This document shows positions 316 through 56,928 of a stretch of 64,000 nucleotides of DNA, one piece after another (the stretch's first letter is position 1; each line of letters starts with the position of its first letter). The notes under the pieces are model-generated. The model made no database searches, was not told the DNA's origin, and worked only from the letters and a program-made list of their open reading frames with translations. The position numbers were made by a program, and so were the translations under genes. This DNA is from Sacculina carcini (taxonomy: Eukaryota; Arthropoda; Thecostraca; Sacculinidae): the NCBI GenBank assembly GCA_916048095.2, contig OU696571.1, positions 7,696,001 through 7,760,000 of the forward strand, read 5' to 3'.

Positions 316-328
316 AAAAAGTGTGTGT

Positions 329-728
329 GTTTGTGTGTGTGTTTGGGCTATGATGTTTCCGTATGCAAGTGTGTATGTTAGCGCGAGTGAAAGTGTGCGC
401 GTGTTTGTGTGGCTGTGGTCCTTGCGCGAGCGGTAGATGATTGTTTGTGGATGCGTACGTGTCTGTATGCGCAGCACTGGTTATACAGGCAGATGGTGTG
501 CACGTGTGTGTATGTGTATGCATGGAGTGTGTGTGTGCGTGTGTTGGTGTGCGTGTGTGCTGAACTTTGTTGGTGACTGTAACTAGGGGAAAAGGGGAGT
601 CGGTCTTGAAGCGTGTCTACGAGTGGTGTGGTCTTGTAGGCGCGCGTGGGACATCGCCGTCCCACGCGCGCCTGTCTTTCAATACATGTTTCTGTGTACG
701 TTGTGGAGTTGGACTTCGGCATCTTACA
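329..728 (+). repeat. 5' LTR of element alpha (5'-truncated)
   Basis: Matches the 3' LTR at 1436-1880 nearly base for base from the TTTGGGCTATGATG segment onward, ending GGCATCTTACA. It contains the perfect hairpin GGCGCGCGTGGGAC/GTCCCACGCGCGCC at about 640-671. Confidence 0.8.
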
Positions 729-740
729 AGCTATTTCGGC
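729..740 (+). other. Primer-binding-site-like sequence of alpha, complementary to the tRNA-Phe 5' end
   Basis: AGCTATTTCGGC abuts the LTR with no gap. Its reverse complement GCCGAAATAGCT equals nucleotides 1-12 of the conserved metazoan tRNA-Phe (recalled, not searched). Normal LTR elements pair with the tRNA 3' CCA end (TGG...), so this is atypical. Confidence 0.6.
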
Positions 741-1435: not shown

Positions 1436-1880
1436 TGTGGTATATTGCTGAGCCATTAGTGTGTGTGTTTGTGTGTGTGTGTGTGTGTGTTTGGGCTATG
1501 ATGTTTCCGTATGCAAGTGTGTATGTTAGCGCGAGTGAAAGTGTGCGCGTGTTTGTGTGGCTGTGGTCCTTGCGCGAGCGGTAGATGTTTGTTTGTGAAT
1601 GCGTGCGTGTCTGTATGCGCAGCACTGGTTATACAGGCAGATGGTGTGCACGTGTGTGTATGTGTATGCATGGAGTGTGTGTGTGTGTGCGTGTGGTGGT
1701 GTGCGTGTGTGCTGAACTTTGTTGGTGACTGTAACTAGGGGAAAAGGGGAGTCGGTCTTGAGGCGTGTCTACGAGTGGTGTGGTCTTGTAGGCGCGCGTG
1801 GGACATCGCCGTCCCACGCGCGCCTGTCCTTCAATACATGTTTCTGTGTACGTTGTGGAGTTGGACTTCGGCATCTTACA
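1436..1880 (+). repeat. 3' LTR of element alpha
   Basis: 445 bp, TGTGG...TTACA, preceded by a short purine-rich CACGGCGGCG stretch in the place of the polypurine tract. It carries the GC-rich hairpin at about 1790-1825, as the 5' copy does. Confidence 0.8.
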
Positions 1881-12026: not shown

Positions 12027-12402
12027 TGTATTGTGTTTATTGTGTATTGCATGGTATTGTATTTTGTACTATATATAATTGTGTGTGCGTGCATGTGTAT
12101 TTGTGTGCGTACGTGGGAGTGTGATTTTGTGTACGTTGTTGTATGCGCGCGCGGAGGTAGCTGCGTTGCATAAGCGCGAGCGATGAGTGCATGTATGCGC
12201 GGGTGGTATCCGCCCGGAGTCAACGGTCGCTCGTGCATGTTGGGCAGTGCGTTACTGGTGAAGTGAGAGTGTGGTGTTTGTGCAGTGGCTTAGAGTGTTG
12301 TTCGGTGGAGAGAGTAGTATTTAGTGCATTCTTTTGCGGTGTGATCGTGTGGAATCGTGCTTTCTTGTTCTTTTTTATTTTTAGTGCTTACATTCAAATA
12401 CA
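12027..12402 (+). repeat. 5' LTR of element D
   Basis: 376 bp, TGTATTG...ATACA, the same length as the 3' copy with only scattered substitutions. It contains a GCGCGCGCGGAGG GC-rich stretch and ends directly at the primer-site-like AGCTAACCGGCC. Confidence 0.9.
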
Positions 12403-12414
12403 AGCTAACCGGCC
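12403..12414 (+). other. Primer-binding-site-like sequence of D, complementary to the tRNA-Ile 5' end
   Basis: AGCTAACCGGCC abuts the LTR. The reverse complement GGCCGGTTAGCT equals nucleotides 1-12 of conserved metazoan tRNA-Ile(AAU) (recalled). It differs from the tRNA-Phe version in sister elements but occupies the same tRNA positions. Confidence 0.6.
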
Positions 12415-13916: not shown

Positions 13917-14292
13917 TGTATTGTGTTTATTGTGTATTGCATGGTATTGTATTTTGTACTATATATAATTGTGTGTGCGTGCATGTGTATTTGTGTGCGT
14001 ACGTGGGAGTGTGATTTTGTGTACGTTGTTGTATGCGCGCGCGGAGGTAGCTGCGTTGCATAAGCGCGAGCGATGAGTGCATGCATGCGCGGGTGGTATC
14101 CGCCCGGAGTCAACGGTCGCTCGTGCATGTTGGGCAGTGCGTTACTGGTGAAGTGAGAGTGTGGTGTTTGTGCAGTGGCTTAGAGTGCTGTTCGGTGGAG
14201 AGAGTAGTATTTAGTGCATTGTGTTGCGGTGTGATCGTATGGAATCGTGCTTTCTTGTTCTTTTTTATTTTTCGTGCTTACATTCAAATACA
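13917..14292 (+). repeat. 3' LTR of element D
   Basis: 376 bp, preceded by the purine run AGGGGGATA, ends ATACA, followed by the TATTT duplication. Confidence 0.9.
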
Positions 14293-16913: not shown

Positions 16914-16925
16914 GCCGAAATAGCT
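16914..16925 (-). other. Primer-binding-site-like sequence of Y, complementary to the tRNA-Phe 5' end
   Basis: On the minus strand AGCTATTTCGGC follows GATGCTACA with no gap; the plus strand reads GCCGAAATAGCT, identical to tRNA-Phe nt 1-12. Confidence 0.6.
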
Positions 16926-24107: not shown

Positions 24108-24820
24108 CCTCCACCTGTTTAAAAAAAATATAAATCAACAAAAGAACAGACAATTAAAAAACGCGAACCAAGCAAACCAGGAACCAATAAAAAAACCTCA
24201 CTCGACGACGGCCTCCACCATATGCACACACCGTGGCTGCGGCGAAGCACACAAGTCAGGCCCCAGCGTCTACCGCGCTTCCGCCTCCGCCCGTGCTCTT
24301 CGGTGCTTCGCCGCAGCCTGCCGTCTTCTTCATCACCGGCTGCCGCGACAGGGCACAACACTTTGACCCCAGCACCCACTATGCTCCCGTCGACTCCAGT
24401 GCTCTTCAGCACCCTGCCGCAAACAGCCGGGACGTCGCCGTTCACACAGGCCACGCCGTCGCCGTCGTTCGTCATGTTTTCCTCCGGCTTCAGCAGCCCC
24501 TCTCTGTCACCTGCCGTCCAGCACCAGCATCCTCCACGAGCGATCGTTGCCTCCACTGACAATCCTGTAGTTGCCCGGCGACGTGCCTTACACCAGTGCA
24601 GGCGAGACGACCAGCATCCCTCGGCCACAGCTCCTCAGCTGCCTCCCGCCGGTATCATGCTGCACTGCCGTCCCCCTGCACACCAACCTGACACGCCGCC
24701 CAGCACCTCCATCGCTGTTCTCCGCTGGTAGGCCGCTACTGATGATGGAAGGCACCATCTCCGCTGCTGAAGCCGGGTCGCAGACAAAAATAATTCCAAA
24801 ACAAAAAGGCTGAAATAGCT
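24108..24820 (-). other. Interior of element X (non-coding)
   Basis: 713 bp between polypurine tract (AGGTGGAGG next to the left LTR on the minus strand) and primer site (24809-24820, GCTGAAATAGCT on the plus strand, one mismatch from tRNA-Phe nt 1-12). Open frames of up to 169 codons on both strands show low-complexity Ser/Pro or Gly/Arg composition and no domain. It aligns with the interiors of alpha and zeta. Confidence 0.7.
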
Positions 24821-36068: not shown

Positions 36069-36326
36069 TGTAGTGGCTTCGTGTAATTACGATAATCATC
36101 CACAATAACCGATAATCATAAACAGAGCAGAAACATAAACGGAACACAGTTAATACAATCAACGTTAATCGCGCGTACAAACAGCACACCTTGACACTCG
36201 TGCCCAGACTGCCTGACCCAACACGGTCAAGTTCCGTGTCACATTCTAGTTACGTCATCTAGTGTCGGCCAGGGAGATTACACAGTACATTTCAAATAAA
36301 GCGACCGTATAGGTGGCGATACTACA
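36069..36326 (-). repeat. 3' LTR of element A
   Basis: 258 bp; ends TGTAGT/ACTACA; matches 49595-49852 almost exactly. Confidence 0.9.
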
Positions 36327-36338
36327 CATCCCCTCACT

Positions 36339-39300
36339 TTAAAAGTCAACATAATCATCAAAGCGAACGGGACGGCGGCGGTTACGCACATTCCGCGCAT
36401 TAGATGGCTGAGGCGCTGCTCCTGGTTCGGCCACCTCCGACTTATCTGATGTCACAGCTCCTTCTGCCTCGATCGCCGGTGCCTCGCATTCTATAGCGCT
36501 TTCGTCTCGAGCACCAACAAAATCTTGATTTTTGTCGAGCGGTGGACATTGGAAATCCGTGTCCCTGGTTCGAGCCTTGACCAGATGAGCCGGGTTCCGA
36601 ACGGTTCCGTCTTCCAGCCGAAATGACGAGCCCCGCCTTTTGACTATTTGCAGTGGCGGGCTGAAACGCGGCGACAGCTTTGCGGGTCGTCCGGGTGTCC
36701 GTACATGCACCCAGTCTCCTGGACACAGTGTTGACTCTCGCACAGTGTGTCTGCGATTGTAATTTCTTCGGTTACGATCCTGTTGACGTTGAACCTGATC
36801 ATGAACAGCGCTGGTCGTCGGTACAGCTGTAACAGGCAGTACCAACCGCATGTTTCACCCGTGCAGCAAAACTGACGGTGCGACGCCCGTTGTGCAGTGA
36901 GGTGTCGCCCTGTACCCAGCTAATAGCTGACGGATGCGGTCCTTGAATGCTCCACGATGATGGTTTTGGAACCACGTCTTCAACGTCCTATTAAACCGCT
37001 CTACGACACCATTGCCTTGTGGCCAATATGCAGCCGATCGTCGATGGACGATGCCACGGTGTCGGAGGTATTCTTCGAATTCCTGGCTCACAAACTGTGT
37101 ACCATTGTCGCTGACTAGCTCGTCCGGATATCCCTCGCGCGCAAAAACTGAGTTGAGGAATTCAATCACGGTGCGTGTATTTGTCGATGCAACAAGACCG
37201 ACTTCGGCCCACTTGGAGTGATAATCCACGACAGTGATTGCGTAACGACAATCTTCTTCTGTCGTATACACAGGACCGACAATGTCAATGCCAAGTTTCG
37301 ACCACGGTTTAGTAGGCAACTTTACGGGTTGGAGTGGTGCCGTCCGAAGTCGAGCACTGAGGGTCTTGTCGCTACTTTGACATTGAATACAGTTATGGAT
37401 GCAAGCCCTTACGTCTTCGTCCATATTCGGCCACCATGCTAGATTTCGCAGCATCTGCTTTGTCCGCATGATGCCGTCGTGTGATGCGTGCGCCCGACTG
37501 ATATACGCGGATCTCAGCTCGCGTGGCAATATAATTTGTTGTCCTGCGCGCAATACTAGATCACCCTCCGTAGATAGTTCGTGTCGAACCGGAAAATACG
37601 GCTTTATCTGCGACTCACATTGCTTGATATCTCTGGGAAACCCAGTCCGTATCAGCTGACGTAGATCGTTGAGTTCCGGATCATCCGAGCTAACTTCTCG
37701 AACCGTAGATTCTGAGATACTCGGATGATCGTCAATCGTTGCGATGATTTCCCAGTCATGTTCTTCCACGTTGTCGCGGTTCTCATGTTCGGTGTTGGGT
37801 GTTGAGTCGGTGTTGGGTGTTAGCCGGGACAAAGCGTCTGCCACTGTCAAGCGATTACCAGCGACGTGTTCCACTACGTATGAGTAGGGTATCAACCGAG
37901 CCTGCCACCTCGCGACTCTTGCTCCCGCTCGACCGCTGAAATTGGCCGAAAGGATCGACTTGAGCGCAGAATGATCAGTGCGAAGTGTGAAATAGCGTCC
38001 CCAGAGGAAGATTTTCCATTTTTCGATAGCTTGTACCGCGGCTAGCGCTTCCCGCTCTGTGACTGAATATTTTGATTCTGCAGGAGAGAACTTCCTGCTC
38101 CAGAATGACACAACATGCTCCTGGCCACGATCATCACTTTGTGACAACATGCCACCTGCACCTTTTTCACTGGCGTCTGTGGTAACGTATGTTCTCCAGT
38201 TCGTCTCAAAGCGGCTGAGAGGATTTGCGTCTTCGATTGATTGCTTCACCTTCTGGAAAGCTGTAGTGTGCTCTGATGTCCAATTGAAGGCAGTACCTTT
38301 TTTGAGAAGGTTATAGAGTGGACTCACTACCGTTGCATAATCTGGCACAAAGTGTGACAACCAACTAGCCAGACCCATAAAACTACGAAGTTCTTGAGCG
38401 TCAACGGGACGCTGTGCACTCCTGATAGCCTGCAGATGGTCGTCTGAGGGCGAGATACCGGCCCGTGATATAGAAAATCCGCAGAACTGCAGCGTTGGCT
38501 GTGCGAACGATGATTTTGAGAGATTGAGTGCGACATTGGCCTGTCTCAGTCGGCTCATGAGTAGTCGTAGACGCTTGTCATGCACTTCTTTTGCAGGTCC
38601 AGCACAAACAATGTCATCCATGTAATGACAACATCCTGGAATGTCTGCCAGCACACGATCCAATAGTCGCTGAAAAGCTGCTCCCGCTGAGACTAGTCCG
38701 AAGGGTAATCGTTTATATTGAAACAATCCGTCATGCGTGATGAACGCAGTGACATGACGCGAATCTGGATGTAATTCTAATTGATGGTAGGCCGAATGGA
38801 GATCTAGTTTACTGAAAACGCAGCCTTTGAGTTGACTCGAAAGCTCCTGAAATGTCGGCAGCGGATGAACGTCGCTCACTATTTGCGCGTTTGGTCCTCT
38901 CAGGTCAACGCAGATTCGAATATTTCCATTCTTCTTGCGAGCGACCACAATTGGGCTCACCCACTCAGTTGAGTCGACACGCTCGATTACTCCCGTGTTG
39001 ACCAGTTTGTGCGATTCTGCCGACAACTCCTCTCTGATTGCCAGCGGTAGTCGACGCAGCGGATACGCTTTAGGCGTGGCACCTGGCTTGAGTCTGATTT
39101 TGTGACAGAAACCCCTCAGTGCCGGCAGTTCCTGAGAATTTGCTTCGGTCTCGACTTTACACACAACTCCGTTTTGTGGAGAAATGGTGAGACCCAATTC
39201 GGCCAGAGTAGATAGTCCGAGGAGACCTTCTGACGTCGGAGTGTTAATGACAACAAACTTTGTCGACGTTGTGTGTGCACCAACTGATATACGTGCTTGT

Positions 39301-39701
39301 AATTCTCCGACAACTTGAAGAGGTCGACGTCCAACTCCGTACAGTTGAGTGTCCGTGGGAGTTACATGTGCGCCTTCAAAATGTTTCCTGGCAAGAGGAA
39401 GACTCAAGACAGATACACTCGCACCTGTGTCAATTTGCAACGTCACATTAGCTGTTTTCCCTGTGTCGACAGTTATGATCGACTCACACGTGAGTTTCTT
39501 CTGCTGTGAAGATGTACAGTTCAAGATGGTGACTCCCTTGACATTTTTAGTCTGGTTCTTGTGTCTGCTCTGCGGTTTGGGTTTTCGTTTTGCTGCTGCT
39601 GAACGACAAACAACTGCCCAGTGTCCTGAATGACCACATATGTTGCATGTTGATTTGAATGCAGGGCAGAACTGTGCACGCGGTGCTCCATGACATCGTC
39701 C
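36339..39701 (-). pseudogene. Element A pol: protease, RT, RNase H, integrase (one in-frame stop)
   Basis: After the insertion site the frame has a zinc-knuckle-like CNICGHSGHWAVVC, then an aspartic protease (LQIDTGASVSVLSLP), RT (GVIERVDSTEWVSPIVV, IRICVDLRGPNAQIV, CCHYMDDIVCAG), RNase H (YVTTDASEKGAGGMLSQ, VTEREALAAVQAIEKW, LRTDHSAL), an integrase HHCC finger (HASHDGIMRTKQML, CIQCQS), a D-D-E core (IDIVGPVY, VSDNGTQFVS, GNGVVERFNR) and a C-terminal module (GDWVHVRTPGRPAKLSPRF). The only break is TGA at 36852-36854 after GVAPSVLLHG, likely a point mutation. Domain order is that of Mag-like Ty3/gypsy elements. Confidence 0.85.
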
Positions 39702-39706
39702 GCAGT
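39702..39706. repeat. Target duplication GCAGT of element B (left)
   Basis: GCAGT precedes TGTCACAT at 39707 and is repeated at 48875-48879 after GTTACA. Confidence 0.9.
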
Positions 39707-39923
39707 TGTCACATATGTATGTAGATATATCCCACTGCCGTGGAAGTGGCTTGACGGTGCGCACGCGGGTGCTCGGGAGTGTGGCGCAGGACAGTGTGCA
39801 ATACATGGTTGTATGATCAACATGTTACATGATGTCAGAAGGGCCCAGTAGATTTGTGAGTTATTTGTGAGTGTGTGTGAGTGGTGTCGTTTCTCTGTGA
39901 GTTTTGTTGTGCGGGTTTCAAGG

Positions 39924-42219
39924 ATGGCAGCTAGACAGCCTCCGGAGCTGGAGTTGACCTCACCTGTGTTAGCGTCGGAGTGGAATGCATGGAGGAGAGA
40001 CTGGACATACTTTGCTGCGGCAAACGAATTGTGCACAAAGCCGGTGGCCGTGCAAGTGGGCACATTTTTCAATTGTGCAGGGCGGCAGGCTCAAGAAGTG
40101 GCGTCTCATTTCAGTTGGACGGAAACGGATGGCTTGGACGCGCTAGTTCAAGAATTTGAGAAGTACTGTGCGCCGCGCAAGAACGAGGTGCTCGAGCGGT
40201 ACCGCTTCTACCAGCCGGTACAGCAGTCGGGAGAAACGGTGAGCGCGTACGTGTCGGCATTGAGAAAACAAGGAGCCCCATGTAATTTCAAAGATCTAGA
40301 CAGCATGCTGAGGGACCGGCTAGTGATGGGTATAGCAGATAAGGCGGCCCAGCAAGCGCTGTTGCGCGAGACCGAGCTCACTCTGGAGTCTGCACTGAAA
40401 ATTGCCCTGTCGGAAGAAGCGGCCAAGCGGGACCAGCAGGTCATCAGCGGCGATGTGGTGGTATCGGCGACTCAGTCCAGCGTCTGTGAGATCAGTGACA
40501 TGGCGGAGGTGGAGGCGCGCCAGTGTCGTTTTTGCCGGCGTCGCCACGCAATGCGGCGTGAGCTGTGTCAGGCCTGGGGGCGTCGCTGCAATGCGTGCGG
40601 TCGGATGCATCATTTTGCTCGTAGCGAGGCGTGCACCATGGGTGCGGGTGCATCTGATGGGCAGCAACAACAACAACAACAGCAGCAGCAGCGGCCGCAG
40701 CCGACAGGAAGACCGTCCAGCCGGTATGGTCCGAGTCGATTTCACAGCAGAAGAGATGTGAACGTCAATGAAGCGACTGCGGGGGATTGTCAGGATGTCT
40801 TATCCATTGCTGAGGGACATAACTGTAATGACAGTAAAGTATTCAAGACCTTGTTTACAGTTTGTGGTAAGCCATTAAAATTGCTCATTGATTCAGGGTC
40901 GGAGACGAATGTTTTGTCTCGCAGTGACTATGTTAAAATTTCAGGTGATGTTGAGTGTACTGATCTGAGACCATGTAAGATGATGTTACGCATGTACAAT
41001 GGTCAGCTTGTGTCGACTGTGGGGAAGGTCACGATTGTCTTAATTAATCGTACGTGTAATTTTCGTCACTCATTGTTATTTCACGTGTTGGATCTTGATG
41101 TGAAGCCCATTTTGAGCTTGCGGTCGTCGGTGCACATGAACCTCATTGCTGTTAATGATTGTGACCCCCTTGAGTATGTGCCAAAAGTGCAGGCTGTGAC
41201 TCAGTCTGACGCAATGTTTGCTAATATGAGGGTTAACGACAATGCTCGCGATTACATCGTTTCTCAATATCCAAGTGTTTTTACTAAAGAAGGGGTGGGT
41301 CTGGTAGCCTCTGATGTTAATATTGAATCTGATCCGAAGGTGAATCCCGTTGTAGAAAACCCTGAAAGAGTTCGTATCCACCTGCGTGAAAAATTGCGTG
41401 TCAAGTTGAGTCAACTGGAGGAGCAGGGTATTCTAGTACGCGTAACTCAGCCAACGGATTGGGTGTCAAATTTGGTGATTGTACCGAAACCCGATGGCGA
41501 TATCCGAGTGTGTATCGACCCGAGAACCCTTAATAAAGCAATAAAGCGTGAGCACTATCCTACGCCAACTTTTGATGAAGTGAGTTATCGTCTATCAGGC
41601 GCAAAAGTATTCACCATGCTGGATGCTCGATCGGCTTTTCATCACGTTGGTCTGTCAGAAAAATCATCGTTGCTGTGTTGTTTTCATACCCCATTTGGTA
41701 GATACAGATGGACTCGTTTGCCATATGGAGTGTCGTGTGCGCCAGAAATTTGGCAACGCTTGATGCATGAGATGGTAGCGGATCTAGAGGGTGTAGAGGT
41801 AATAGCCGATGATTTTATAGTATATGGAAAAGGTGAGACCCGCGCAGAGGCAATTGCCGATCATGATGCAAAATTGCGAGCATTTCTTGACAAGGCTCAG
41901 AAATGCAATTTACGACTAAATCAGGACAAATTACGTTATCGTCTTCAGGAAGTTTCGTGGTTGGGTCATGTGGTAAGCGAAGCAGGAATTAAAGTGAGTC
42001 TTTCTAAAGTGGAGGCTGTAGTTAAATTTCCGGCGCCAAGCAAAAAAATCGAGCTGAAGCGTTTCATGGGTATTGCATCCTATCTCTCGCGATTTATTCC
42101 CGAATTTTCAACGGTAACAGCTCCGATGCGTCATTTGCTCAGTCAAAAATACGATTGGTTATGGAGTGACTCGTGTCAGACTGCGTTTGAGCGAATCAAG
42201 CGATTACTAACAGAGGCTC
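39924..42219 (+). pseudogene. Element B gag, protease and RT (first part of gag-pol)
   Basis: Start at ATG 39924. Gag (residues ~1-200) has a capsid-like region (WNAWRRDWTYFAAANELC, LVQEFEKYCAPRKNEVLERY, GETVSAYVSALRKQ) and a Cys/His region (CRFCRRRHAMRREL, CNACGRMHHFARSEAC). A CAG/CAA run encodes about 11 Gln near 40665-40695. The protease reads LLIDSGSETNVLSR (DSG active site). RT reads GILVRVTQPTDWVSNLVIV, IRVCIDPRTLNKAIKREHYP, RYRWTRLPYGVSCAPEIWQR, VIADDFIVYG and SWLGHVVSEAGIKVS, and breaks off after AFERIKRLLTEA where C is inserted. Confidence 0.85.
42215..42219. repeat. Target duplication GGCTC of element C (left)
   Basis: GGCTC precedes TGTGGTG at 42220 and is repeated at 46810-46814 after ATTCACA. 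Confidence 0.9.
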
Positions 42220-42668
42220 TGTGGTGTATTACTGTGGTATTAGTGCGTGTGTGTGCGTTAGGGATATGGTGTTTGCATAAGCAAGTGTGTATGTGTATGT
42301 GAGTGAAAGTGTGCGTGTTTGTGTGGCTGTGATCCTTGCGCGAGCGGTAGGTGTTTGTTTTGTGAATGCGTGCGTGTCTGGTTGTACAGGCAGATGGTGT
42401 GCATGTATGTGTTTGTGTGTGGGAGCGCGCGTGTACTGTACTGTGTTGGTAACTAGGGGAAATGTGGAGCGTTCGAGGGCAGTTGGTTTAGTGGTGTGAA
42501 CTGGGAGCGTGGGGCGAACGAGTGCGTTGGCAAGAGGGTATCTGTGTTGTGTGGAGTTAACGCTTTGTCGCGGGATCGTGTAGATTCGTGCGTGGATTCG
42601 TGGTCATTAACATATCGCAGTTTTCATCACGTTATTTTTTCTGTACATCGTTGTTGAATACATTCACA
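42220..42668 (+). repeat. 5' LTR of element C
   Basis: 449 bp, TGTGGTGTATTAC...TACATTCACA, apparently identical to 46361-46809. Confidence 0.92.
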
Positions 42669-42680
42669 AGCTATTTCGGC
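42669..42680 (+). other. Primer-binding-site-like sequence of C, complementary to the tRNA-Phe 5' end
   Basis: AGCTATTTCGGC directly after CATTCACA. Reverse complement GCCGAAATAGCT equals tRNA-Phe nt 1-12 (recalled). No TGG-type 3' primer site lies nearby; the gag ATG follows 3 nt later. Confidence 0.65.
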
Positions 42681-42683
42681 ACA

Positions 42684-43439
42684 ATGGCAAATATGAAGCT
42701 TCATGATATCCTGCGACAGTTCGATGGAGGGCAGGACGTCGTTCAGTGGATAAACAAGCTCGAAAGAGTTGCAAAACTGCAGAAGATCGACGATTTGGCC
42801 AACGTGCTGCCGCTTTTTCTTGACGGAAAAGCCTACGATGTGTATAATGAGATGAACGAGCAGAAGAAGGAAGTGTACGAAGACGTCAGAACGAAACTCC
42901 TCGATGCTTTTTCCGCCAATCGGTTCACCGCATACGAAAGATTCGCATGTAGCAAGTGGAGCGGTGAAACCGCGGACGTTTATATGTCCGCTCTGAGGAA
43001 ACTTGCAAAACTGGCCGAAATCGAGAACGAGGACGTTCTCAAAAATGCTTTCGTGGTCGGTATGCCGCGAGATGTGTCTCGGGAGCTTAGAACAATGCCG
43101 AACATAAAGACGATTGGACTGGATGCCGTGATAGAAAGAGCCCGGGTATTGTTGGAGGATGAGAGAGGAGACGCGGCGATGGTTTCAAAGAACGCGCAAC
43201 CTAGACCGGTCGAGGACAAGAAGCTGTACGGCGGGTGCTTTTTGTGCGGAGGACCGCACTTGGCGAGGAACTGTGGTCGTGCCGTTCGTAGAGGACGTCG
43301 CCAGGTGGAATGCTTCCGATGTGGAGGACCGCACTTTAGGCGATACTGCCCGCAGCCTTCAGACGTCGTTGACTGCTCGGGAAACGACGAGGGGAGAACT
43401 GGTGCGCCGGCAGTTCTCCCGGCTCCCAACGGGCAGTAG
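42684..43439 (+). CDS. Element C gag
   Basis: 252 residues from ATG 42684, the first ATG after the primer site. The capsid-like region MKLHDILRQFDGGQDVVQWI, LPLFLDGKAYDVYNEM, FSANRFTAYERF and VYMSALRKLAKLAEI is shared with E, D and Y. The C-terminus has two Cys/His knuckles of slightly unusual spacing (CFLCGGPHLARNC and CFRCGGPHFRRYC; both CX2CX4HX4C-like with GGPH). It forms the particle shell and binds element RNA. The last ~67 nt overlap pol in the -1 frame and carry the frameshift signal. Intact. Confidence 0.85.
   Translation: MANMKLHDILRQFDGGQDVVQWINKLERVAKLQKIDDLANVLPLFLDGKAYDVYNEMNEQKKEVYEDVRTKLLDAFSANRFTAYERFACSKWSGETADVYMSALRKLAKLAEIENEDVLKNAFVVGMPRDVSRELRTMPNIKTIGLDAVIERARVLLEDERGDAAMVSKNAQPRPVEDKKLYGGCFLCGGPHLARNCGRAVRRGRRQVECFRCGGPHFRRYCPQPSDVVDCSGNDEGRTGAPAVLPAPNGQ
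43379..43420 (+). promoter_or_regulatory. -1 ribosomal frameshift signal of element C (GGGAAAC, 6 nt spacer, 10 bp hairpin)
   Basis: GGGAAAC at 43379-43385 in phase G GGA AAC with gag codons. Spacer 43386-43391. Perfect stem GGGAGAACTG (43392-43401) with CAGTTCTCCC (43411-43420), 9 nt loop. The pol frame is -1 to gag and is open from 43373, just upstream of the heptamer; gag stops at 43437-43439. These are the known parts of a -1 frameshift element. Confidence 0.85.
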
Positions 43440-46306
43440 AGGCGTTACCGTGTGTCCCAGCCACTGTCAACGGACATCAACTGAGTGCGGTTGTCGATAC
43501 GGGATGCACCAAAACGATGGTACTGCGACAATACGTTGGTCGTGCTCATGGTTCTTGTCGTGTTACCAGTGTTGATGGTCGGAGTGTCGAGTGCGCGGGT
43601 ACCGCGACGGTGCTGTTGTCCGTTGGAGGTGAGCTTTTTCGTTTTCATGTTATTGTAGTTGATAAGTTGTTGGGTGACGTCAGAATGATTCTTGGGATGG
43701 ACGCGATCATGAGGCTTGGGGGCGCTTATATTGGAGCAGGAGGAGTGGTGTTTGGTGCGAGAGGTGTTCAGCGAGGTGTTTCGAGCGAGGGCAAATTGGT
43801 AGGCCCGGTGAAAGATGCTGTCTGCGTAGTGAGCGAGAGTACACGGCGTGACTGCGGGGAAACGCCCATTGAGAATGCGACACGTTGTATTTTCATTGAT
43901 GACTGTGACTTTGAGGCGAAATTTGACGGCAACGGCTGGGTGGTCAAATGGAAGTGGAGAGACGGGCCGCCTGTTTTGAGTAATACTGTCGGTTGTTACA
44001 ACAGTGTTCGTGATCCAAAACTGAAGCCAAGATTTGACGAAGAGATCAAACGTTGGATCTCACTTGGTTGGCTGAAACCATGTAACTCTGCTGGAGGTGT
44101 TTTGCCTTTGATGGCAGTTGACCAATCCAACAAGAATAAGGTGAGACCTGTGCTCTACTTCAGGGAACTTAATGCGCACGTACAATGCCACGCAGGCTAC
44201 GACGCACCGGTATGTGGTGAAACACTCAGAAGATGGAGGAAATGGACAGCCCCTCTGAAATTGGTTGATTTAAAATCATCTTACCTACAGATTGGAGTGG
44301 ATGAAAGTCTTTGGAAGTACCAACAAGTGGAGTACGGGAATTCGAGATTCTTTCTGACAAGGCTTGGATTTGGGCTCAACTGCGCACCCCGCATCATGAC
44401 CAAGATTCTAGCTAAGGTTTTGAGCCAAGACGAACGCATTCAAAGTGCCACTGACTCGTACATCGACGACATACTGGTGAACGAAAGCATCGTCAGTGCA
44501 GATGAAGTAGTTCTCCATCTCCGGAAATACGGGCTAGTCGCAAAGGATCCCGAAAAATTAGACAACGGGCGTGTGCTCGGTTTGCAACTAGTTACCCACG
44601 GAAGTGGTGAGTTGATGTTTCGGCGAGGTAACAAGGTGCCAAAATCCGTTGAAGCTGGGCTTACTAAACGTGGCCTATTTTCGCTATGTGGGAAGCTGGT
44701 GGGGCACTACCCTGTAGCGGGTTGGTTAAGGGTGGCAACCAGTTTCGTGAAGAGGTCATCACAGGAGTGTGCATGGGAGGACGTTGTCAGTGAGAGCACA
44801 TTGAAAATGGCGAACTCGATGCTTGGAATGGTTGAAGAATGTGACCCTGTTCGAGGAAAGTGGTATGTACCCAAATCAAAGAAAGGAAAGGTGTGGTGTG
44901 ATGCCAGCAGTTTGGCATTGGGTGTTTTGCTGGAAATAGACGGATCAGGAGTGGAAGACGCATCATGGTTGCGCAAAACGAATGACGCCAATCACATTAA
45001 CCTTGTCGAGCTGGACGCCGTACTGAAGGGAATCAATCTAGCTGTCAAGTGGGGATTGGACGAGATTGAGGTGATTACTGATTCAATGACAGTTATGGGG
45101 TGGCTGAGGTCTACGCTTAGTGGTGAGCGCAGAGTGAAGAGTAGCAGTGCGGCTGAAGTGCTGATTCTGCGCCGGCTGGGCCTCCTGAGCGCCATGGTCA
45201 CCGAGCTTGCGATCACAATCAAACCCTCATTCATAAGGTCTGAAAGTAACAAAGCGGATAGGCTAACGCGTGTTCCCAAGTCATGGCTGGAACTACGCCG
45301 TGAGAACAGTGACGAAATATGTGCATTGACACTTCATGAAATGCATGCACAACATTATTTCGGAGTGGACAGGACTCTCTCGTTGGCGAGAATGGTGGAC
45401 CCAGATACGACGAGGTCCCAGGTAAAAAGATGCGTCAGAGAGTGCGTTCAATGCCAGTCGATTGATCCGGCGCCGTCCAGCCATCAACCTGGATATCTGA
45501 GTGTGGACGAAAACTGGTGTCGACTGGCGGCAGATGTGACCCAGTACAGAGGCCAGTCTTATCTGACAATCGTGGATTCTGGGCCTTGTAGGTTCGCCGT
45601 GTGGAAAAGAATACGGTCGGAAAACGCTGACGATATCGCGAGGGTAATTCACGAGCTTTTCCTCGAACGTGGACCGGCTGCAGAACTTCTCCTAGACAAC
45701 AGCCCAGCTTTCAAATCATCAAAGCTTGCGGATGTTTGCGATAGATGGGGTGTGAAGCGCAGATATCGTGCAGCATATAGACCCTCAGGTAACGGAATCG
45801 TCGAGCGGCACCATAGGACGATCAAGCGTATGGCGGAGCGGTGCAGAACAACACCTATCGAGGTGTTGTTTTGGTACAATATGGCCCCAGCAGATTCCAA
45901 CGAGGCGACGGTGTCCCCCGCGCATGGCATTTATAAGTACCAGTGGCGACATCCGTCGGCGAGGAAGGATCTTCCTGAGGGAGATGGTGGTGTTTGGCGT
46001 GTTGGTGATGACGTCTGGGTGAAGCCGAAGGATGCACGTTGCACGACGCGCTGGAGAAGAGGTCGCATCACCGGAGTAGTTTCGCCCAACAACGTCGAAG
46101 TTGACGGTGTGTCACGCCACGTTCTGAACATTCGGCGAGTATTAGGGAGGGAGTCCGAGGACGAGAGCGAATGTTCACAGGACGAGACGGATCCGGTGAT
46201 TTCCCAAGGACGTGTTGAGAACGTGGATCAAGAGACGGAACCCGAGTTTGTGCCAAGGTCAACGCGAGAAAGACGAGCACCGGCGTGGCTCGACGACTAC
46301 GTATAA
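43386..46306 (+). CDS. Element C pol: protease, RT, unusual RNase H, integrase
   Basis: Entered by -1 frameshifting; the first in-frame ATG (43517) lies inside the protease, so it is not the natural start. Protease: VVDTGCTKTMVLRQ near 43487 and MILGMDAIMRLGG. RT: VRPVLYFRELNAHVQCH, LKLVDLKSSYLQIGV, FFLTRLGFGLNCAPRIM and catalytic YIDDILV (~44458). RNase H: VWCDASSLALGVLLEIDG, HINLVELDAVLKGINLAV, EVITDSMTVMGWL and NKADRLTR. Integrase: HEMHAQHYFGVDRTL with CVRECVQCQS, then D in LAADVTQY, D in LLDNSPAF and E in NGIVERHHR; a C-terminal module (VWVKPKDARCTTRWRRGRI) follows. No stop codon; looks functional. Confidence 0.88.
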
Positions 46307-46360
46307 CTTTACCTGTATGTTAATATGTCTGATAATTTTGATGTGTACATCATGGGGGCG

Positions 46361-46809
46361 TGTGGTGTATTACTGTGGTATTAGTGCGTGTGTGTGCGTT
46401 AGGGATATGGTGTTTGCATAAGCAAGTGTGTATGTGTATGTGAGTGAAAGTGTGCGTGTTTGTGTGGCTGTGATCCTTGCGCGAGCGGTAGGTGTTTGTT
46501 TTGTGAATGCGTGCGTGTCTGGTTGTACAGGCAGATGGTGTGCATGTATGTGTTTGTGTGTGGGAGCGCGCGTGTACTGTACTGTGTTGGTAACTAGGGG
46601 AAATGTGGAGCGTTCGAGGGCAGTTGGTTTAGTGGTGTGAACTGGGAGCGTGGGGCGAACGAGTGCGTTGGCAAGAGGGTATCTGTGTTGTGTGGAGTTA
46701 ACGCTTTGTCGCGGGATCGTGTAGATTCGTGCGTGGATTCGTGGTCATTAACATATCGCAGTTTTCATCACGTTATTTTTTCTGTACATCGTTGTTGAAT
46801 ACATTCACA
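46361..46809 (+). repeat. 3' LTR of element C
   Basis: 449 bp, identical by eye to the 5' LTR; followed by GGCTC. Confidence 0.92.
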
Positions 46810-46814
46810 GGCTC

Positions 46815-48574
46815 CTCTGCTGGCGTTTTATGATAAGGATGCCCCGGCGACTGTTCAGTGTGATGCGTCTTCATCCGGTCTGGGTGCTGTGCTGCTGCAG
46901 AAGGGGCGTCCAGTGGTGTACTGTTCCAGAGCGCTGACCGAGTCGGAGAAAGCTTACTCGCAAATAGAGAAAGAGTTGCTAGCGGTTACATTTGCAATGA
47001 AAAGGTTAGACCAGTTTGTATACGCTCGGCACGTAACAATTCAGACGGATCATAAGCCGCTGGTTGCCATTCGTGAAAAGCCTCTTGTGGAAGCACCGCT
47101 TCGCTTACAGAGAATGTTGATGACCTTGCAACGATATCAATTTGAATTAAAATACACACCTGGATCGGAAGTTCCTGTGGCTGATGCTCTGAGCCGTGCA
47201 CCGATGTCGAACACTCTTGAGAGAGCGACGTGGGCGGTGGAAATGAATGAACTCAGTCTGTCTGATGAGTTAGCGGTAACGGATGCGCGCTTGGAAAAAT
47301 ACAGAGAAGCGACGTTGGCAGATCCAGGCTTACAAAAAGTGCGTGAGTACGTAATAAGTGGGTGGCCGGAACAACGAAGCAGTGTCGATCAGGTAGCGGC
47401 CCCTTACTGGTCAGTGAAACATGAGTTGTCTGTTCAGAACGGTCTGGTTTACAAGTCAAACAGGCTGGTCATTCCATCGTCAATGAGACTTGAATTGTTA
47501 AATAGGTTTCACAGAAGTCACATTGGAGTGGCTTCAATACTCAGGCTGGCCCGGGATAATGCCTTTTGGCCCGGAATGACGGCAATGGTGAGGGACAAGA
47601 TATTACGATGTGAAATATGCATTTCATACCGTCCCCAACAGCCTCCAGAGCCATTAACGCCGCACGAGGTGCCAAGTCGGCAGTGGCAAAAAGTTGGCAC
47701 GGATATATTCGAATTTCGCGGTGCTCATTATCTCGTTTTAGTCGATTACTTCAGTGGATATATTGAAGTTGAACGATTGTCGCCTGTAACAACGACGGCT
47801 TTGACAAATATTCTCTCCCACCAATTTGCTCGTTATGGTGTGCCGGAAGTACTTGTGTCTGATAACGGGCCACAATTTGCCAGTCTTAACTTCAAAGAGT
47901 TTGCGTTATTTGTGGATATGTTGCATATAACGTCAAGTCCGAGGTATCCGCAGTCGAATGGTCGTGCAGAAAACGCTGTCAAGCTAATCAAGGGGATCTT
48001 CCGAAAAGCGCACGATACTCGGCAGAATCCCATATGGGCGCTCATGCTTTGGCGAAATACACCCATTCAATATACAGCCTTCTCGCCGGCGCACGTTATG
48101 TTCGGACGTCGGTGTCGCACTCTAATGCCCACAACCCGACGTTCATTAGAGCCGGATCCTCCTAAAGGGGTTCGGGACAATTTGCTGAATAGCAAAGCCG
48201 ATCAAAAACATTATTATGATCATCAGGGAGTGCGGTCATTGCCGCCGATTCGTCCAGGGACAGCAGTTCGGGTAAAACGGCCGGATCAAAACTCGTGGTC
48301 ACGGGGAGAATGTGTAAGGAAGCTACCCTATAAGTCGTATTTGGTAAAAGTGGGTAGCACACTGTATCGACGAAATCGCCGTCATATTTTGATGACAGGG
48401 GAAGATAATCCCGTGCAGTCGACCCGTAGCTACCAGATGATCCAAGGGCTTCCCAGCCCTGAGGTCCTCCCGTCCAACAGGTCAAACACAACAGGCAATG
48501 AGGATCGTGTGTTACCGCGGCGGTCTATGCGTATTCGTCGACCGCCGGCGTATTTGAATGATGATGTGCCGTGA
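46815..48574 (+). pseudogene. Element B RNase H and integrase (second part of gag-pol)
   Basis: Resumes in the same frame after C. RNase H: VQCDASSSGLGAVLLQKGRP, YSQIEKELLAVTFAMKRL, IQTDHKPLVAI. Integrase HHCC finger: HRSHIGVASILRLA and CEICISYRP; core: GTDIFEFRGAHYLVLVDYFS, VSDNGPQFAS, QSNGRAENAVK. The C-terminal part RPGTAVRVKRPDQNSWSRGE ends RRPPAYLNDDVP. Intact wording with no stop; separated from its start only by C. Confidence 0.85.
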
Positions 48575-48710
48575 ACGCGTGTTATGCAATGCCATTTCAT
48601 GTGGTATGTATGTTGTGATTAACTTGGAGGGGGAGGTATAACGTGTGTATGTATGTGCGTGTATTTTATTTCATGTTTTATATAGGTTGTGATTGACTTG
48701 GAGGGGGAGG

Positions 48711-48874
48711 TGTCACATATGTATGTAGATATATGTGCGTGTGTGTTATGAACAGTGCGTGACGTCACGCGTCACGCCACTGTCGTGGGAGTGGCTTGAC
48801 GGTGCGCACGCGGGGGCTCGGGAGTGTGGCGCAGGACAGTGTGCAATACATGGTCGTATGATCAACATGTTACA
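48711..48874 (+). repeat. 3' LTR of element B
   Basis: 164 bp, TGTCACATATG...GTTACA, preceded by GGAGGGGGAGG. The 5' copy lacks the GTGCGTGTGTG...GTCACGC segment. Confidence 0.9.
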
Positions 48875-48879
48875 GCAGT

Positions 48880-49538
48880 GTGAACATGATTGAGTTGCAT
48901 TGTTTTGTGCAGATGTTTCTCGCGGTGATTGCTTGCGTGAATTGTAAACAGCGTTAGTGTGTTCTATTGCCGACAATTCCGCCGTCAGATGAGGAGCGCT
49001 CATCATGGCTGATTGCTGCTTTGCAGACTCATAGGCTTCTGCCATTTTCATCAGCGAGTCTAATGTGAGCGAAGCATCTCGCAAAAACCGCTCACGGAGG
49101 TTCGGGTAGATGGTGTGCTCAACCACCTGGTCGCGTATGATTTCGTCGGTCAAATCACCGTACTTGCAGTTCATCGCTAGACCCCGTAATGCTGATATGT
49201 AGTCGGCCGTTGTCTGCTGCCTCCTCTGTTTTAAACTGAATCGTTCAGCAATGACATTGACTTTTGCACCGTAGTAGTCAGACAACTGTCGCATTGCCAA
49301 TGCGCTCTCTGATTCGTTCTCGCGCTTCACAGTAGGTGGGAGTGAGCGGAAAACACGTAGAGCTTCAGCTCCGATTGAGTGCAGAAGTAGAGCACGCTTT
49401 CGATCCTCGGCGAACTTGTTTCCGTCTACAGCGAGCATGTAATTCTCAAAGGAATATCTCCACTCGTCCCATGGAATCAATGGTTTGCCAGGTTGAGGCA
49501 AAAACGGAAGCGGCGGCGTAATACTCTGAATACTCATA
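48880..49538 (-). pseudogene. Element A gag (interrupted by B)
   Basis: Starts at ATG 49538 (a TTG-initiated frame extends 10 codons further). Capsid-like Gag of the Mag type: PPLPFLPQPGKPLIPWDEWR, AEDRKRALLLHSIGAEALRV, FSLKQRRQQTTADYISALRG, YPNLRERFLRDASLTLDSLM. It breaks off in the Cys/His region (NNATQSCSHC) at the GCAGT duplication and resumes at 39701 with the rest of the knuckles. No stops on this side. Confidence 0.85.
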
Positions 49539-49594
49539 TCAACTTTAGTGGGTTTGACACGAGCCAAAATTACCTGTGGGTCCTCGTCGCCAAT

Positions 49595-49852
49595 TGTAGT
49601 GGCTTCGTGTAATTACGATAATCATCCACAATAACCAATAATCACAAACAGAGCAGAAACATAAACGGAACACAGTTAATACAATCAACGTTAATCGCGC
49701 GTACAAACAGCACACCTTGACACTCGTGCCCAGACTGCCTGACCCAACACGGTCAAGTTCCGTGTCACATTCTAGTTACGTCATCTAGTGTCGGCCAGGG
49801 AGATTACACAGTACATTTCAAATAATGCGACCGTATAGGTGGCGATACTACA
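49595..49852 (-). repeat. 5' LTR of element A
   Basis: 258 bp. The minus-strand primer site TGGCGACGAGGAC lies 2 nt inside; AGGAG follows at 49853-49857. Confidence 0.9.
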
Positions 49853-51269: not shown

Positions 51270-53094
51270 ACGAAAAAAACAAGTTTCCGCCTTGGTGCTT
51301 TGGATGGAAAGCACATCAAGGTAATCAAACCAGAAGCAAGTGGATCACTGTATTATAATTACAAATATTATTTCTCCGTATCACTTCTTGCTCTTTGTAA
51401 CAGAAATATAAAACTCGAATAGATTACAGACAGTCGCGCGTGGGCATCACTGCCCCACGCGCGCCCACAAGACGTCACACCACACTCGTACCACCAACCA
51501 GACTTCTAGCTCACACCGTGACACACGGGATCACACACGTACACACACGCGCACAGTCCTCACCCGCTGCAACAACCAATCAGCGGCGAGCCGGTCATTC
51601 GCACGCCGCCGCTGGCATGGACAATTCACAAACGCATACACACACAGCTATACACAACTATACACACTTGCTCACACACTCTCGCACGCAATACGCAATT
51701 CAACTGTACACTCTCACACATAGACACATTAACACGCACACACACTCTCTCACTGCACACAATCACACTACACATCCACTTGTTTTTATAGAAACAAATC
51801 AACTAAAGAACGTACAATCATAAAAACGCAAACCAAGCGAAAATGAACGAATTAAAAAGCCTAACTCGACGACGGCCTCTACCAGACGCACACACATTAG
51901 CTGCGGCGAAGCACAACACTTTGGGCCCCAGCATCCACCACGCTCCCGCCTCCGCCCGTGCTCTTCAGTGCTTCACCACAGCCTGCCGTCCTCTTCATCG
52001 CCGGCTGCCGCGACAGGGCACAACAACACTACCCCAGCATCCAACATGCTACCGTCGACACCCGTGCTCTTCAGCACCCTGCCGCAGACAGCCGTGACGT
52101 CGCCGCACACGCAGGCCACGCCGTCGTCGTCGATCCTTTCCTCCTCCGGCCTCAGTAGCACCTTTCTTTCGCCTGCCCTTCATCACCAGCAGCCTCCACC
52201 AGCAAACTGCCAGCTGCCCGGCGACGAGTCCACCACCAGTGCAGGCGGGACGACGAGCAACCCTCGGCCACAGCTCCACCGCTGCTTCCTGCCGGCACCA
52301 TGCTCTCCTGCCGTCCCCCTGCAAACCAACCTGACACGCCGCCGAGCACCTCCACATCTTCCAAGCCACTCCTAATACTGGAGGGCACTATCTCCGCTGC
52401 TGAAGCCGGATCGCAGAATAACAATACTTCCAAAACATAAAGGCCGAAATTGCTTGTAACAGAAAAAAAACTCAAATAGATTACAGACAGGCGCGCGTGG
52501 GCATCACTGCCCCACACGCGCACACAAGACGTCACACCACAATTGCACCACCAAGCAGACTTCTAGCTCACACCGTGACACACGGGAGCACACACGGACA
52601 CACACGCGCACAGTCCTCACCCGCCGCAACAACCAATCAGCGACGAGCCGGCCATTCGCTCGCCGCCGCGGGGCATGGACAATTTACAAACGCATACACA
52701 CACAGGTATACACAACTATACACACTTGCTCAAACACTCTCGCACGCAATACGCAATTCAACTGTACACGATCACACATTAACACGTTCACGCACACACA
52801 ATCTCAGTCAACGTAGACACAATCTCTCACACACACTCTCTCACTGCACACAATCACACTAAACTCTTTGTGATGCATCGTATAATTTCCGCTTCAATGA
52901 TGTGAGCTCGTACGGAAAATCTTCAGACTTAACTGTGTTAAAAATAGTGTGTTCTTCAAGAGATTGTCGAACAAAACTTTTAATATTCCTCCGCCAGTTG
53001 AGTCACACTGTGGATTTGAGACTCCAATGCCGTTTGTGTTTGTGGCTGAGGAAGCATTTGGCTGGGCAAGAAAGCATGCGGTCATATTATGGTG
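51270..53094 (+). pseudogene. Harbinger transposase remnant, split by zeta
   Basis: Before the insertion: [34 protein letters not shown] (about 51295-51395), which holds the first catalytic Asp (GALDG) and the SGSLYYNYK...FS signature of the Harbinger DDE nuclease. After it (52864 on): CDASYNFRFNDVSSYGKSSD (second Asp), then, after a frameshift, FNIPPPVES, MPFVFVAEEAF and KHAVILW-like sequence near 53000-53090. The N-terminal helix-turn-helix and the C-terminal end are missing. An upstream frame (50948-51241) is too diverged to assign. Confidence 0.8.
51396..52863 (-). mobile_element. Element zeta: non-autonomous LTR element of the alpha/X family
   Basis: LTRs at 51396-51772 and 52454-52863 (377 and 410 bp), interior 681 bp. 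CTCTT is duplicated at 51391-51395 and 52864-52868. Minus-strand sense: primer-site-like AGCAATTTCGGC (52442-52453) adjoins the right LTR. LTRs share with X the GC-rich hairpin, CACACCGTGA(C/A)ACACGGGA, CCAATCAGCGG and (CA)n-rich segments. Interior open frames (up to 135 codons) are low complexity, without gag or pol motifs. The interior aligns with those of alpha and X. Confidence 0.85.
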
Positions 53095-53420: not shown

Positions 53421-53821
53421 TTCACCTTCTCCATATCAGTCTTTCAACGCACACCGGCTCTATACTGCACACAACCCCCGACTACAAATGAATGAACACT
53501 GACAAACATGGTTGATCATACAGTTGACGCAACTCAGTGTCCTAGTGTGAAAGGCTCCATATGAAACAATGCTCCACAAGCAGTTGCGGCAACTGATAGT
53601 TGCCTCAACAAGTTGTGCGAATGATCAACTGACGAGCTCAGTTGCCGCAACTTGGAACTGCAGTTGCCCAGTATTAAAGGCTCCATTGATAAATATAGCG
53701 GGCAACTAGTTGCTTAGTGTGAAAGGGGCCTAAGGTTAATGGCATGACACGTGTAACTACTGACCGTACAGTGGTTGGCATGGTACATGTAACTATATAA
53801 ATAATAATAATTTATAAAGAA

Positions 53822-53862
53822 TTATATAATTGATGATATATATATATATAATAATATATAAT

Positions 53863-53909
<47 letters not shown>

Positions 53910-53935
53910 TATATATATATAGATATATATATATT
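53822..53935. repeat. (TA)n microsatellite
   Basis: TA repeats with GATATA interruptions at the junction of the truncated Penelope-like 5' end; repeated at 56840-56938. Confidence 0.9.
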
Positions 53936-53936
53936 C

Positions 53937-54091
53937 TCATTCAGACAAACGAGATTAAACTTGATTGCCGCTTTGCAGTTTTCAATCTTCTTCTTCGTCG
54001 TCTCGATCGCTCGTGCGAGTTTTTGATGATCGCTGTTGAGCTTGTGCAGTAATTCGTCGATGTGTAACGTTTCGGAGCAGCCGGTCTCCAT
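53937..54091 (-). pseudogene. Penelope-like element 5' coding fragment (start of a tandem copy)
   Basis: Minus strand, METGCSETLHIDELLHKLNS followed by DHQKLARA and ending LNEN, then (TA)n. This is the true N-terminus of the Penelope-like protein, absent from the long copies, and it lies downstream of the GIY-YIG end of the copy at 54265. Such an arrangement (3' end of one copy joined to the 5' part of another) is typical of Penelope-like pseudo-LTRs. The same fragment occurs at 56942-57096. Confidence 0.7.
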
Positions 54092-54264
54092 CCTCAGACA
54101 TTGTGGTCAACTAAATGCCGTTTGTTTGTTGTCGATTGTGTGTTTATATAGGACGTCAATTGTATGCGTTATTTTCACGCCTCGTGTATGCGCGCGGTGT
54201 GCGAAATTCGCACCTATGGTCGATGACACCTATGACTCACGCTACTGCGCGCCGTTTGTGGCAC

Positions 54265-56869: not shown

Positions 56870-56928
<59 letters not shown>

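What the first reader, a model, noticed from the sequence alone, without database searches (positions are those of the whole stretch)
42669..42680. A family of LTR elements whose primer site matches the 5' end of tRNAs, not the 3' end
In all six elements with a visible 5' LTR/interior junction, the 12 bases abutting the LTR with zero gap are complementary to tRNA nucleotides 1-12: alpha 729-740, C 42669-42680 and Y 16914-16925 (minus) exactly tRNA-Phe; X 24809-24820 and zeta 52442-52453 tRNA-Phe with one change; D 12403-12414 exactly tRNA-Ile. The match in D to a different tRNA at the same positions argues against chance or simple descent. Classical primers pair through the 3' CCA end; copia and Ty5 use internal initiator-tRNA segments; Tf1 self-primes. 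Inference: a 5' tRNA fragment ending at about U12, or a tRNA cut in the D arm, primes reverse transcription.
Basis: partly seen in the sequence, partly recalled or inferred. Interest (0 to 1): 0.9.

Follow-up and report, generated by a model that had tools for sequence, protein, structure and literature searches.

The report
Retrotransposons primed by tRNA 5' ends
A large group of jumping genes in this genome carries, where copying into DNA should start, a 12-base match to the front end of two cell tRNAs instead of the usual back end, which suggests that a snapped-off tRNA front piece is the starter.

Summary
In the six named window elements the 12 bases after the 5' LTR (...ACA|) are complementary to tRNA nt 1-12: four exactly, two with one change. 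Genome-wide, ACA+AGCTATTTCGGC (Phe type) occurs 1844 times, ACA+AGCTAACCGGCC (Ile type) 368 times; reversed-pattern controls: 0. Host tRNA-Ile(AAT) genes, 8 of 8 read, begin GGCCGGTTAGCT, the exact complement. No host tRNA-Phe gene was found. Of 23 elements chosen by a pol motif, blind to the site, 15 kept a gag start; all 15 have the site (14 exact, one 11/12), though they hold near-copies. Conservation starts after ACA and stops at tRNA nt 1. A gag tree needs two separate Phe/Ile changes. Self-priming fails in 6 of 6 LTRs. Other LTR elements here have TGG-type sites, some for the 3' end of tRNA-Phe. Best reading: a 5'-terminal tRNA piece of 10-12 nt primes minus-strand DNA. Cutting and priming are inferred. 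New variant of fragment-tRNA priming.

The parts
42220..42668 (+). 5' LTR of element C (TG...ACA)
   Evidence: 449/449 identical to the 3' LTR; 5-bp TSD GGCTC at 42215-42219 and 46810-46814
42669..42680 (+). Putative primer binding site of C, AGCTATTTCGGC, complementary to tRNA-Phe nt 1-12
   Evidence: its 7 best-scoring other genome matches all keep 12/12
42684..43439 (+). gag-like ORF of C with zinc-knuckle motifs (motif naming recalled)
   Evidence: homologous gag starts in related families; no Pfam hit
43373..46306 (+). pol ORF of C (stop to stop): protease, DUF7047, RNase H, integrase, in Ty3 order
   Evidence: Pfam; relatives
46361..46809 (+). 3' LTR of C
12027..12402 (+). 5' LTR of element D
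   Evidence: 370/376 identical to the 3' LTR; TSD TATTT
12403..12414 (+). Putative primer binding site of D, AGCTAACCGGCC, complementary to host tRNA-Ile(AAT) nt 1-12
13917..14292 (+). 3' LTR of D
322..728 (+). 5' LTR of alpha (short element)
729..740 (+). Putative primer binding site of alpha, AGCTATTTCGGC
1470..1880 (+). 3' LTR of alpha
16914..16925 (-). Putative primer binding site of Y, AGCTATTTCGGC
   Evidence: the LTR around it is rearranged (inverted repeats)
24809..24820 (-). Putative primer binding site of X, AGCTATTTCAGC (one change)
52443..52454 (-).
49578..49592 (-). In-window control: TGG-type site TGGCGACGAGGACCC of the minus-strand Ty3-type element 36069-49852 (LTRs 36069-36326 and 49595-49852, TSD AGGAG), after a 2-nt gap AT
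   Evidence: pol domains of ORF 36858-39824

Best explanation
These are Ty3-type LTR retrotransposons, with short derivatives, whose autonomous members belong to one pol clade (DUF7047). Their minus-strand primer is the 5'-terminal piece of a host tRNA: Phe in most families, Ile in some. Proposed steps: (1, inferred) the mature tRNA 5' end, nt 1-12, pairs with the 12-nt site directly after the 5' LTR; (2, inferred) the tRNA is cut in the D-stem at the end of that duplex, most likely by the element's RNase H as in Tf1, leaving a 3'-OH at nt 12, or at nt 10 if integrase later trims two bases; (3, inferred) reverse transcription runs from there into U5; (4, inferred) plus-strand strong-stop DNA copies the short primer and runs off at tRNA nt 1, which would explain why conservation stops exactly there. 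Shown: zero-gap position, exact complementarity to host tRNA-Ile nt 1-12, sharp conservation limits, two separate changes between the two tRNA types, absence of self-complementarity in the window LTRs, and recent insertion of C (identical LTRs).
For: 1844 Phe-type and 368 Ile-type exact 15-mers, reversed controls 0. A 30-site Phe sample falls into 11 LTR-tail clusters. In a 13-element sample chosen by the site, 8 have a 3' LTR ending at the same ...ACA boundary without the 12-mer after it. Of 23 loci chosen by pol motif, the 15 with a gag start all carry the site. In those 15 plus the 6 named window elements, columns 1-12 hold only the Phe or Ile letters apart from three single changes, position 13 onward is mixed, and only ACA is near-constant upstream. 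Host tRNA-Ile genes begin GGCCGGTTAGCT, 8 of 8 read. The Ile site matches that tRNA antisense at window 1 with 12/12 (next best 7) and sense at best 7/12, so it is not a copy of the tRNA 3' strand. The gag tree needs 2 label changes; starred branches force 2, and none of 200 bootstrap trees has 1. No LTR of 6 holds the complement; best 7/12 each, as expected by chance. Lys-type and Thr-type versions (recalled tRNA ends) occur 1 and 0 times.
Against: No fragment, cut or cDNA end was observed. The host tRNA-Phe gene was not found. Phe and Ile share nt 8-12, so those five bases do not test the match independently, and the AG after CA could be bases trimmed by integrase (primer ending at nt 10); the control element has two such bases, AT. 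Invading a folded acceptor stem is costly. 8 of the 23 pol-sampled loci have no site; they also lack a gag start, but their LTRs were not located, and the gag test used frames taken from site-bearing loci. The 15 hold near-copies, so they stand for about 10 families. The two changes could be recombination between families rather than fresh capture of a tRNA. No shared second pairing with the rest of tRNA-Ile was seen.
Confidence: 0.78

Rival explanations
1. Self-priming as in Tf1: the element RNA's own 5' end pairs with the site and is cut to make the primer; the tRNA match is incidental.
For: The site is short (12 nt; Tf1 about 11, recalled), abuts the LTR and lacks TGG, like self-priming elements (PMC4600332 and PMC5006619 passages).
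Against: None of 6 window LTRs contains the complement beyond 7/12, no better than shuffles. It would not explain an exact host tRNA-Ile end or the stop at tRNA nt 1. LTRs outside the window were not tested for this.
Confidence: 0.03
2. The 12-mer binds an intact tRNA to anchor or package it (as one arm of a bipartite site) and priming happens from another 3' end.
For: Ty1 and Ty3 use bipartite sites (PMC5371799 passages); opening the acceptor stem would free the tRNA 3' CCA.
Against: No shared second complementarity to tRNA-Ile: best runs of 6-10 bases fall at different tRNA positions in 6 elements and within the shuffled range. The position directly after the LTR is where the primer 3' end must lie to define U5.
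Confidence: 0.1
3. The primer is a longer 5' tRNA fragment or half (copia/Ty5-like) that happens to be cut back to nt 10-12.
For: Internal-cut tRNA priming is known for copia and Ty5 (PMC5371799 passages); a 15-nt fragment GGCCGGTTAGCTCAG is listed in PMC12025293 (passage).
Against: Complementarity ends at nt 12: LTR ACA does not pair with C13 A14 G15, so an uncut longer fragment would have an unpaired 3' end.
Confidence: 0.07
4. A tract fixed by descent or spread by recombination, with no primer role; for example an integrase end signal plus a leader before gag.
For: ACA|AGCTA is nearly constant in both types and could be an integrase end signal.
Against: The type-specific letters (columns 6-9 and 11) change together to the exact complement of another host tRNA in two separate branches; no other primer site was noticed in that place.
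Confidence: 0.02

Closest known systems
Half-tRNA priming (Drosophila copia, yeast Ty5, plant Osser/Bryco/Bianca, fungal Helenus/Copia)
   Same: A cut tRNA supplies an internal 3'-OH (PMC5371799 and PMC10886601 passages, PMC6317226 section 13).
   Different: Those are cut in, or pair with, the anticodon stem or loop region; here the pairing is with nt 1-12 at the very 5' end, in a Ty3-type pol, with Phe and Ile tRNAs.
Tf1/Tj1/sushi self-priming
   Same: A short 5'-terminal RNA segment pairs next to the LTR and would be cut at the end of the duplex, in Tf1 by RNase H (Levin 1996, title only, in the PMC4600332 reference list).
   Different: Here the 5' end is not the element's own: 6 of 6 window LTRs lack it.
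Classical 3'-CCA tRNA priming (retroviruses, many Ty3 and BEL/Pao elements)
   Same: A site downstream of the 5' LTR complementary to a host tRNA; IAP uses tRNA-Phe (PMC7472051 passage).
   Different: No TGG; the opposite end of the tRNA is matched. BEL/Pao-like elements of this genome have the classical tRNA-Phe site.
TRIMs of ants and bivalves
   Same: Alpha, X and zeta are short LTR elements.
   Different: PbTRIM's site is described as complementary to leucine tRNA of D. melanogaster (PMC3532108 passage); in bivalve TRIMs no canonical site was identified (PMC6934838 passages).

Membership tests
Ty3/gypsy-type LTR retrotransposon (element C) | LTRs TG...CA with short TSD | tested here: met
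   C: TG...CA, 5-bp TSD GGCTC
Ty3/gypsy-type LTR retrotransposon (element C) | Order gag-PR-RT-RH-IN, integrase after RNase H | tested here: met
   Protease 28-112, RVT_3 535-581, integrase 721-804 in one ORF. RVT_1 itself is matched in 4 of 5 relatives scanned (P0001 at E 0.0018, P0004, P0010, P0072; not P0070) but not in C at E 0.1
Ty3/gypsy-type LTR retrotransposon (element C) | Placement in a Ty3 RT phylogeny | not tested
   No reference tree was built
Classical 3' tRNA-primed element | Site starting TGG complementary to a tRNA 3' CCA end | tested here: not met
   Site is AGCTATTTCGGC or AGCTAACCGGCC
Half-tRNA (copia/Ty5) priming | Site complementary to the anticodon region of a tRNA | tested here: not met
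   Ile site pairs with nt 1-12; the next best window of tRNA-Ile scores 7/12
Half-tRNA (copia/Ty5) priming | A tRNA fragment with an internal 3'-OH primes | not testable with these tools
   Needs cDNA and small-RNA data
Tf1-type self-priming | Complement of the site at the RNA 5' end within the LTR | tested here: not met
   Best 7/12 in each of 6 window LTRs, at chance level
TRIM (alpha, X, zeta) | Short LTR element, no coding capacity, primer site and PPT | tested here: inconclusive
   Interiors of about 0.7 kb between LTRs of about 0.3-0.45 kb; coding capacity and PPT were not tested formally

The most novel reading that the evidence does not exclude
A fourth mode of LTR-element priming: the reverse transcriptase's own RNase H cuts an annealed host tRNA after nt 10-12, as Tf1 cuts its own RNA, making a primer from the extreme tRNA 5' end. 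This would be an old property of the DUF7047 pol clade, relatives of which are annotated in a crab and an argonaut, and it would let the elements escape 3'-tRNA-fragment silencing.
Probability: 0.3. Interest if true: 0.88.

Novelty: new variant of a known kind. Interest (0 to 1): 0.75.

Why it matters
A 2019 plant survey names three primer types: whole tRNA, half tRNA cut in the anticodon stem, and self-primer (PMC6317226 section 13). A 5'-terminal tRNA piece fits none of them. It would link Tf1-like and copia-like priming, could explain LTR elements in which searches for TGG find no primer site, and gives a testable case of fragment priming with two tRNAs and over 2000 sites in one genome. 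Since 3'-tRNA fragments silence ordinary LTR elements (PMC7472051 passages), using the other end may be an escape route (inference).

Tried and rejected
Self-priming: tested on 6 window LTRs, rejected. Sense copy of the tRNA 3' acceptor strand: rejected, since host tRNA-Ile has ACTGGCC there while the site has ACCGGCC, the strict complement of the 5' strand. Second pairing region with tRNA-Ile: nothing shared in 6 elements. Other tRNAs: Lys and Thr patterns (recalled sequences) gave 1 and 0 sites; the reversed control of the Thr pattern gave 9, that of the Lys pattern 0. A list of recalled tRNA 5' ends gave no match that I judge above chance in 8 of the 9 pol-sampled loci lacking an exact site, the ninth being L088 with 11/12 to Phe. 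L070 has a 9/12 initiator-Met-like stretch at the expected distance but no gag-like frame after it. The remaining isoacceptors were not searched genome-wide. Viral contigs: no relative. tRNA genes in the window: none by ARAGORN. The sequence TTTCGGCACCA at window 802-812 in alpha resembles a tRNA-Phe 3' end in sense orientation; it is one of 3 such matches in 346 kb searched, not pursued. Literature: the ten answered searches (held open-access library only) listed no paper that I could see describing a site complementary to tRNA nt 1-12. I saw listings and, for 11 papers, passages or one section, not whole texts, so this is not proof of absence; Repbase notes and subscription papers were not searchable.

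Full report
1. The observation. The 12-mers lie where stated, except that zeta is at 52443-52454 and that X and zeta are minus-strand elements. Four sites are exact (alpha, C, Y Phe type; D Ile type) and two have one change (X, zeta). The LTR edge is fixed by TSDs of C and D. It is also supported by a 13-element sample chosen by the site: 10 gave a 3' LTR copy in the fetched stretch, 8 of these ending at the same ...ACA with unrelated sequence after it, one (L020) lying in a tandem array, one (L028) cut by the locus end; 3 of 13 gave no copy. In 21 elements the bases before the site are ACA in 20 and ACT in one.

2. How many. ACAAGCTATTTCGGC: 1844 exact sites; ACAAGCTAACCGGCC: 368; the same patterns reversed: 0. 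Expectation for a random 15-mer is about 0.5. The 30 Phe-type sites first listed, all on contig C1, fall into 11 clusters of LTR tails, one cluster of 16 containing the GT-rich short elements. C itself and its 7 best-scoring other genome matches, of 44 places listed, all have 12/12.

3. A sample that does not look at the site. A pol motif (HYP[VI]AGWLR) has 350 exact genome sites; 100 are listed, with 33 distinct spellings. One locus from each of 23 spellings was fetched upstream; the other 10 spellings were left out because I took their families as already seen among site-chosen loci or as C-like. 14 of 23 have a 12/12 site (L074 has ACT instead of ACA before it), one (L088) has 11/12 after ACA, and 8 have none. 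By a cross-family gag comparison, whose queries were C and the frames after the site in site-bearing loci, the 15 with a site have a gag start; L073 has a single hit, to the first residues, its gag being largely lost. Of the 8 without, six have no gag hit and two (L081, L086) have 4 and 3 hits, the best being to the later part of gag. So 15 of 15 with a gag start carry the site: 11 Phe, 4 Ile. They are not 15 independent families: L068/L084, L072/L080, L073/L078, L074/L077 and L076/L090 are pairs of close relatives, and L092 resembles L011, so about 10 families are new. Degenerate 10/12 matches occur in three of the other eight (L079, L082, L087); I estimate about one by chance. That of L082 lies at the expected distance and may be a decayed site.

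4. Which tRNA. Ten host places match a tRNA-Ile-type pattern and all ten read GGCCGGTTAGCTCAGTTGGTTAGAGC. Eight were read in full, are tRNA-Ile(AAT) by ARAGORN, and all begin GGCCGGTTAGCT; 7 of 7 scanned pass Rfam's tRNA threshold. The Ile-type site is the strict complement of nt 1-12 and of no other window of that tRNA (12/12 against 7/12 next). tRNA nt 13-15 (CAG) would need CTG before the site; the LTRs have ACA, so pairing stops at nt 12. tRNA-Phe: human tRNA-Phe(GAA) begins GCCGAAATAGCTCAGTTGGGAG (primer in PMC10505166, passage). No host tRNA-Phe gene was found by four pattern searches: searches gave 0, and one search gave two places that ARAGORN does not call tRNA. Since the gene is essential, I take it to be withheld, unassembled or unusually spelled; this stays open. 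An indirect check: 23 sites TGGTGCCGAAACCCGGGA exist in the genome, reversed control 0. Of five read, three (L003, L098, L099) precede frames of BEL/Pao type by eye; two of the three (L003, L099) were scanned and both hit DUF1759, whose BEL/Pao link is recalled. L096 and L097 were not assigned, and LTR edges there were not checked. These sites imply a host tRNA-Phe 3' strand TTTCGGC and thus 5' GCCGAAA.

5. Changes of tRNA. From 40 collected gag frames of at least 130 residues, 12 were dropped (6 without gag homology, 6 near-copies), and for L028 the frame after its own Phe site replaced that of a neighbouring Ile site; some near-copies stayed in. The tree of 28 (21 Phe, 7 Ile) needs two changes; starred branches force two, and none of 200 bootstrap trees has one. 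L043 (Ile) pairs with L071 (Phe), with L023 (Phe) next, while the other six Ile rows form a separate group. The root is not known, so the direction is open. In both groups the site is the same exact complement of host tRNA-Ile. Fresh copying of the primer would do this; recombination between families is not excluded.

6. Limits of conservation. In the 15 pol-sampled loci plus the 6 window elements named in the finding, columns 1-12 carry only Phe or Ile letters apart from single changes in X, zeta and L088; column 13 onward is mixed, and upstream only ACA is near-constant. The 12-bp duplexes are computed at -18.7 (Phe) and -23.1 (Ile) kcal/mol. The control Ty3-type element of the window has two bases (AT) between CA and TGG, so the AG here could be an integrase-trimmed pair, and the primer end could be nt 10 rather than 12.

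7. Mechanism. Self-priming is excluded for the 6 window LTRs as far as sequence can tell. Ty5 is described as using a 3' end made by RNase P-mediated cleavage in the anticodon loop and copia as using a half-tRNA (PMC5371799 passages). Tf1 needs its RNase H to cut an RNA duplex (title of Levin 1996 in the reference list of PMC4600332). RNase H leaves a 3'-OH (recalled), so cutting of the annealed tRNA at the end of the 12-bp duplex is my preferred step; host cleavage in the D-arm is the alternative. Neither is shown.

8. Relatives. Pol of C has 697 protein relatives at E <= 0.001 among 7993 candidates scored; the 120 best are listed, nearly all without an organism name, two of them named as animal proteins, Petrolisthes manimaculis and Argonauta hians. 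Their DNA could not be read, so whether the site is clade-wide is unknown. The best PDB matches to pol are integrases (27 at E <= 0.01).

9. Literature. Papers seen describe whole-tRNA, half-tRNA and self priming (PMC6317226 section 13 read) and anticodon-loop sites in fungal elements (PMC10886601 passages). The method passage seen in PMC6317226 starts from tRNA 3' ends and TGG, which alone would miss this type; its other steps were not seen. The searches named in Tried and rejected showed no 5'-terminal site.

Noticed in passing
window 36069-49852: Minus-strand Ty3-type element (258-bp LTRs 98.8% identical, TSD AGGAG) with a TGG-type primer site after a 2-nt gap; element C and another plus-strand gypsy-like pol (39852-42218, resuming at 46799-48571) lie inside its span, so this is a nest.
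   Followed up: partly
L003:27-44; 23 sites listed: 18-nt site for the 3' end of tRNA-Phe; in three of five loci read it precedes a BEL/Pao-like gag, so the same tRNA appears to be used conventionally in this genome.
   Followed up: partly
G000: No tRNA-Phe gene found in readable sequence although the gene is essential; withheld or unassembled stretches are one possible reason.
   Followed up: partly
window 53703-59910: Two head-to-tail copies of about 3 kb at 99% identity containing an RVT_1 ORF.
   Followed up: no
window 60548-62478: Tandem array with a unit of about 341 bp.
   Followed up: no
window 802-812: TTTCGGCACCA in alpha, identical in sense to a tRNA-Phe 3' end plus CCA (recalled), about 60 bp after the primer site.
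   Followed up: no
L020/L058: Tandem LTR array: the 3' LTR is directly followed by another copy's 12-mer and interior.
   Followed up: no
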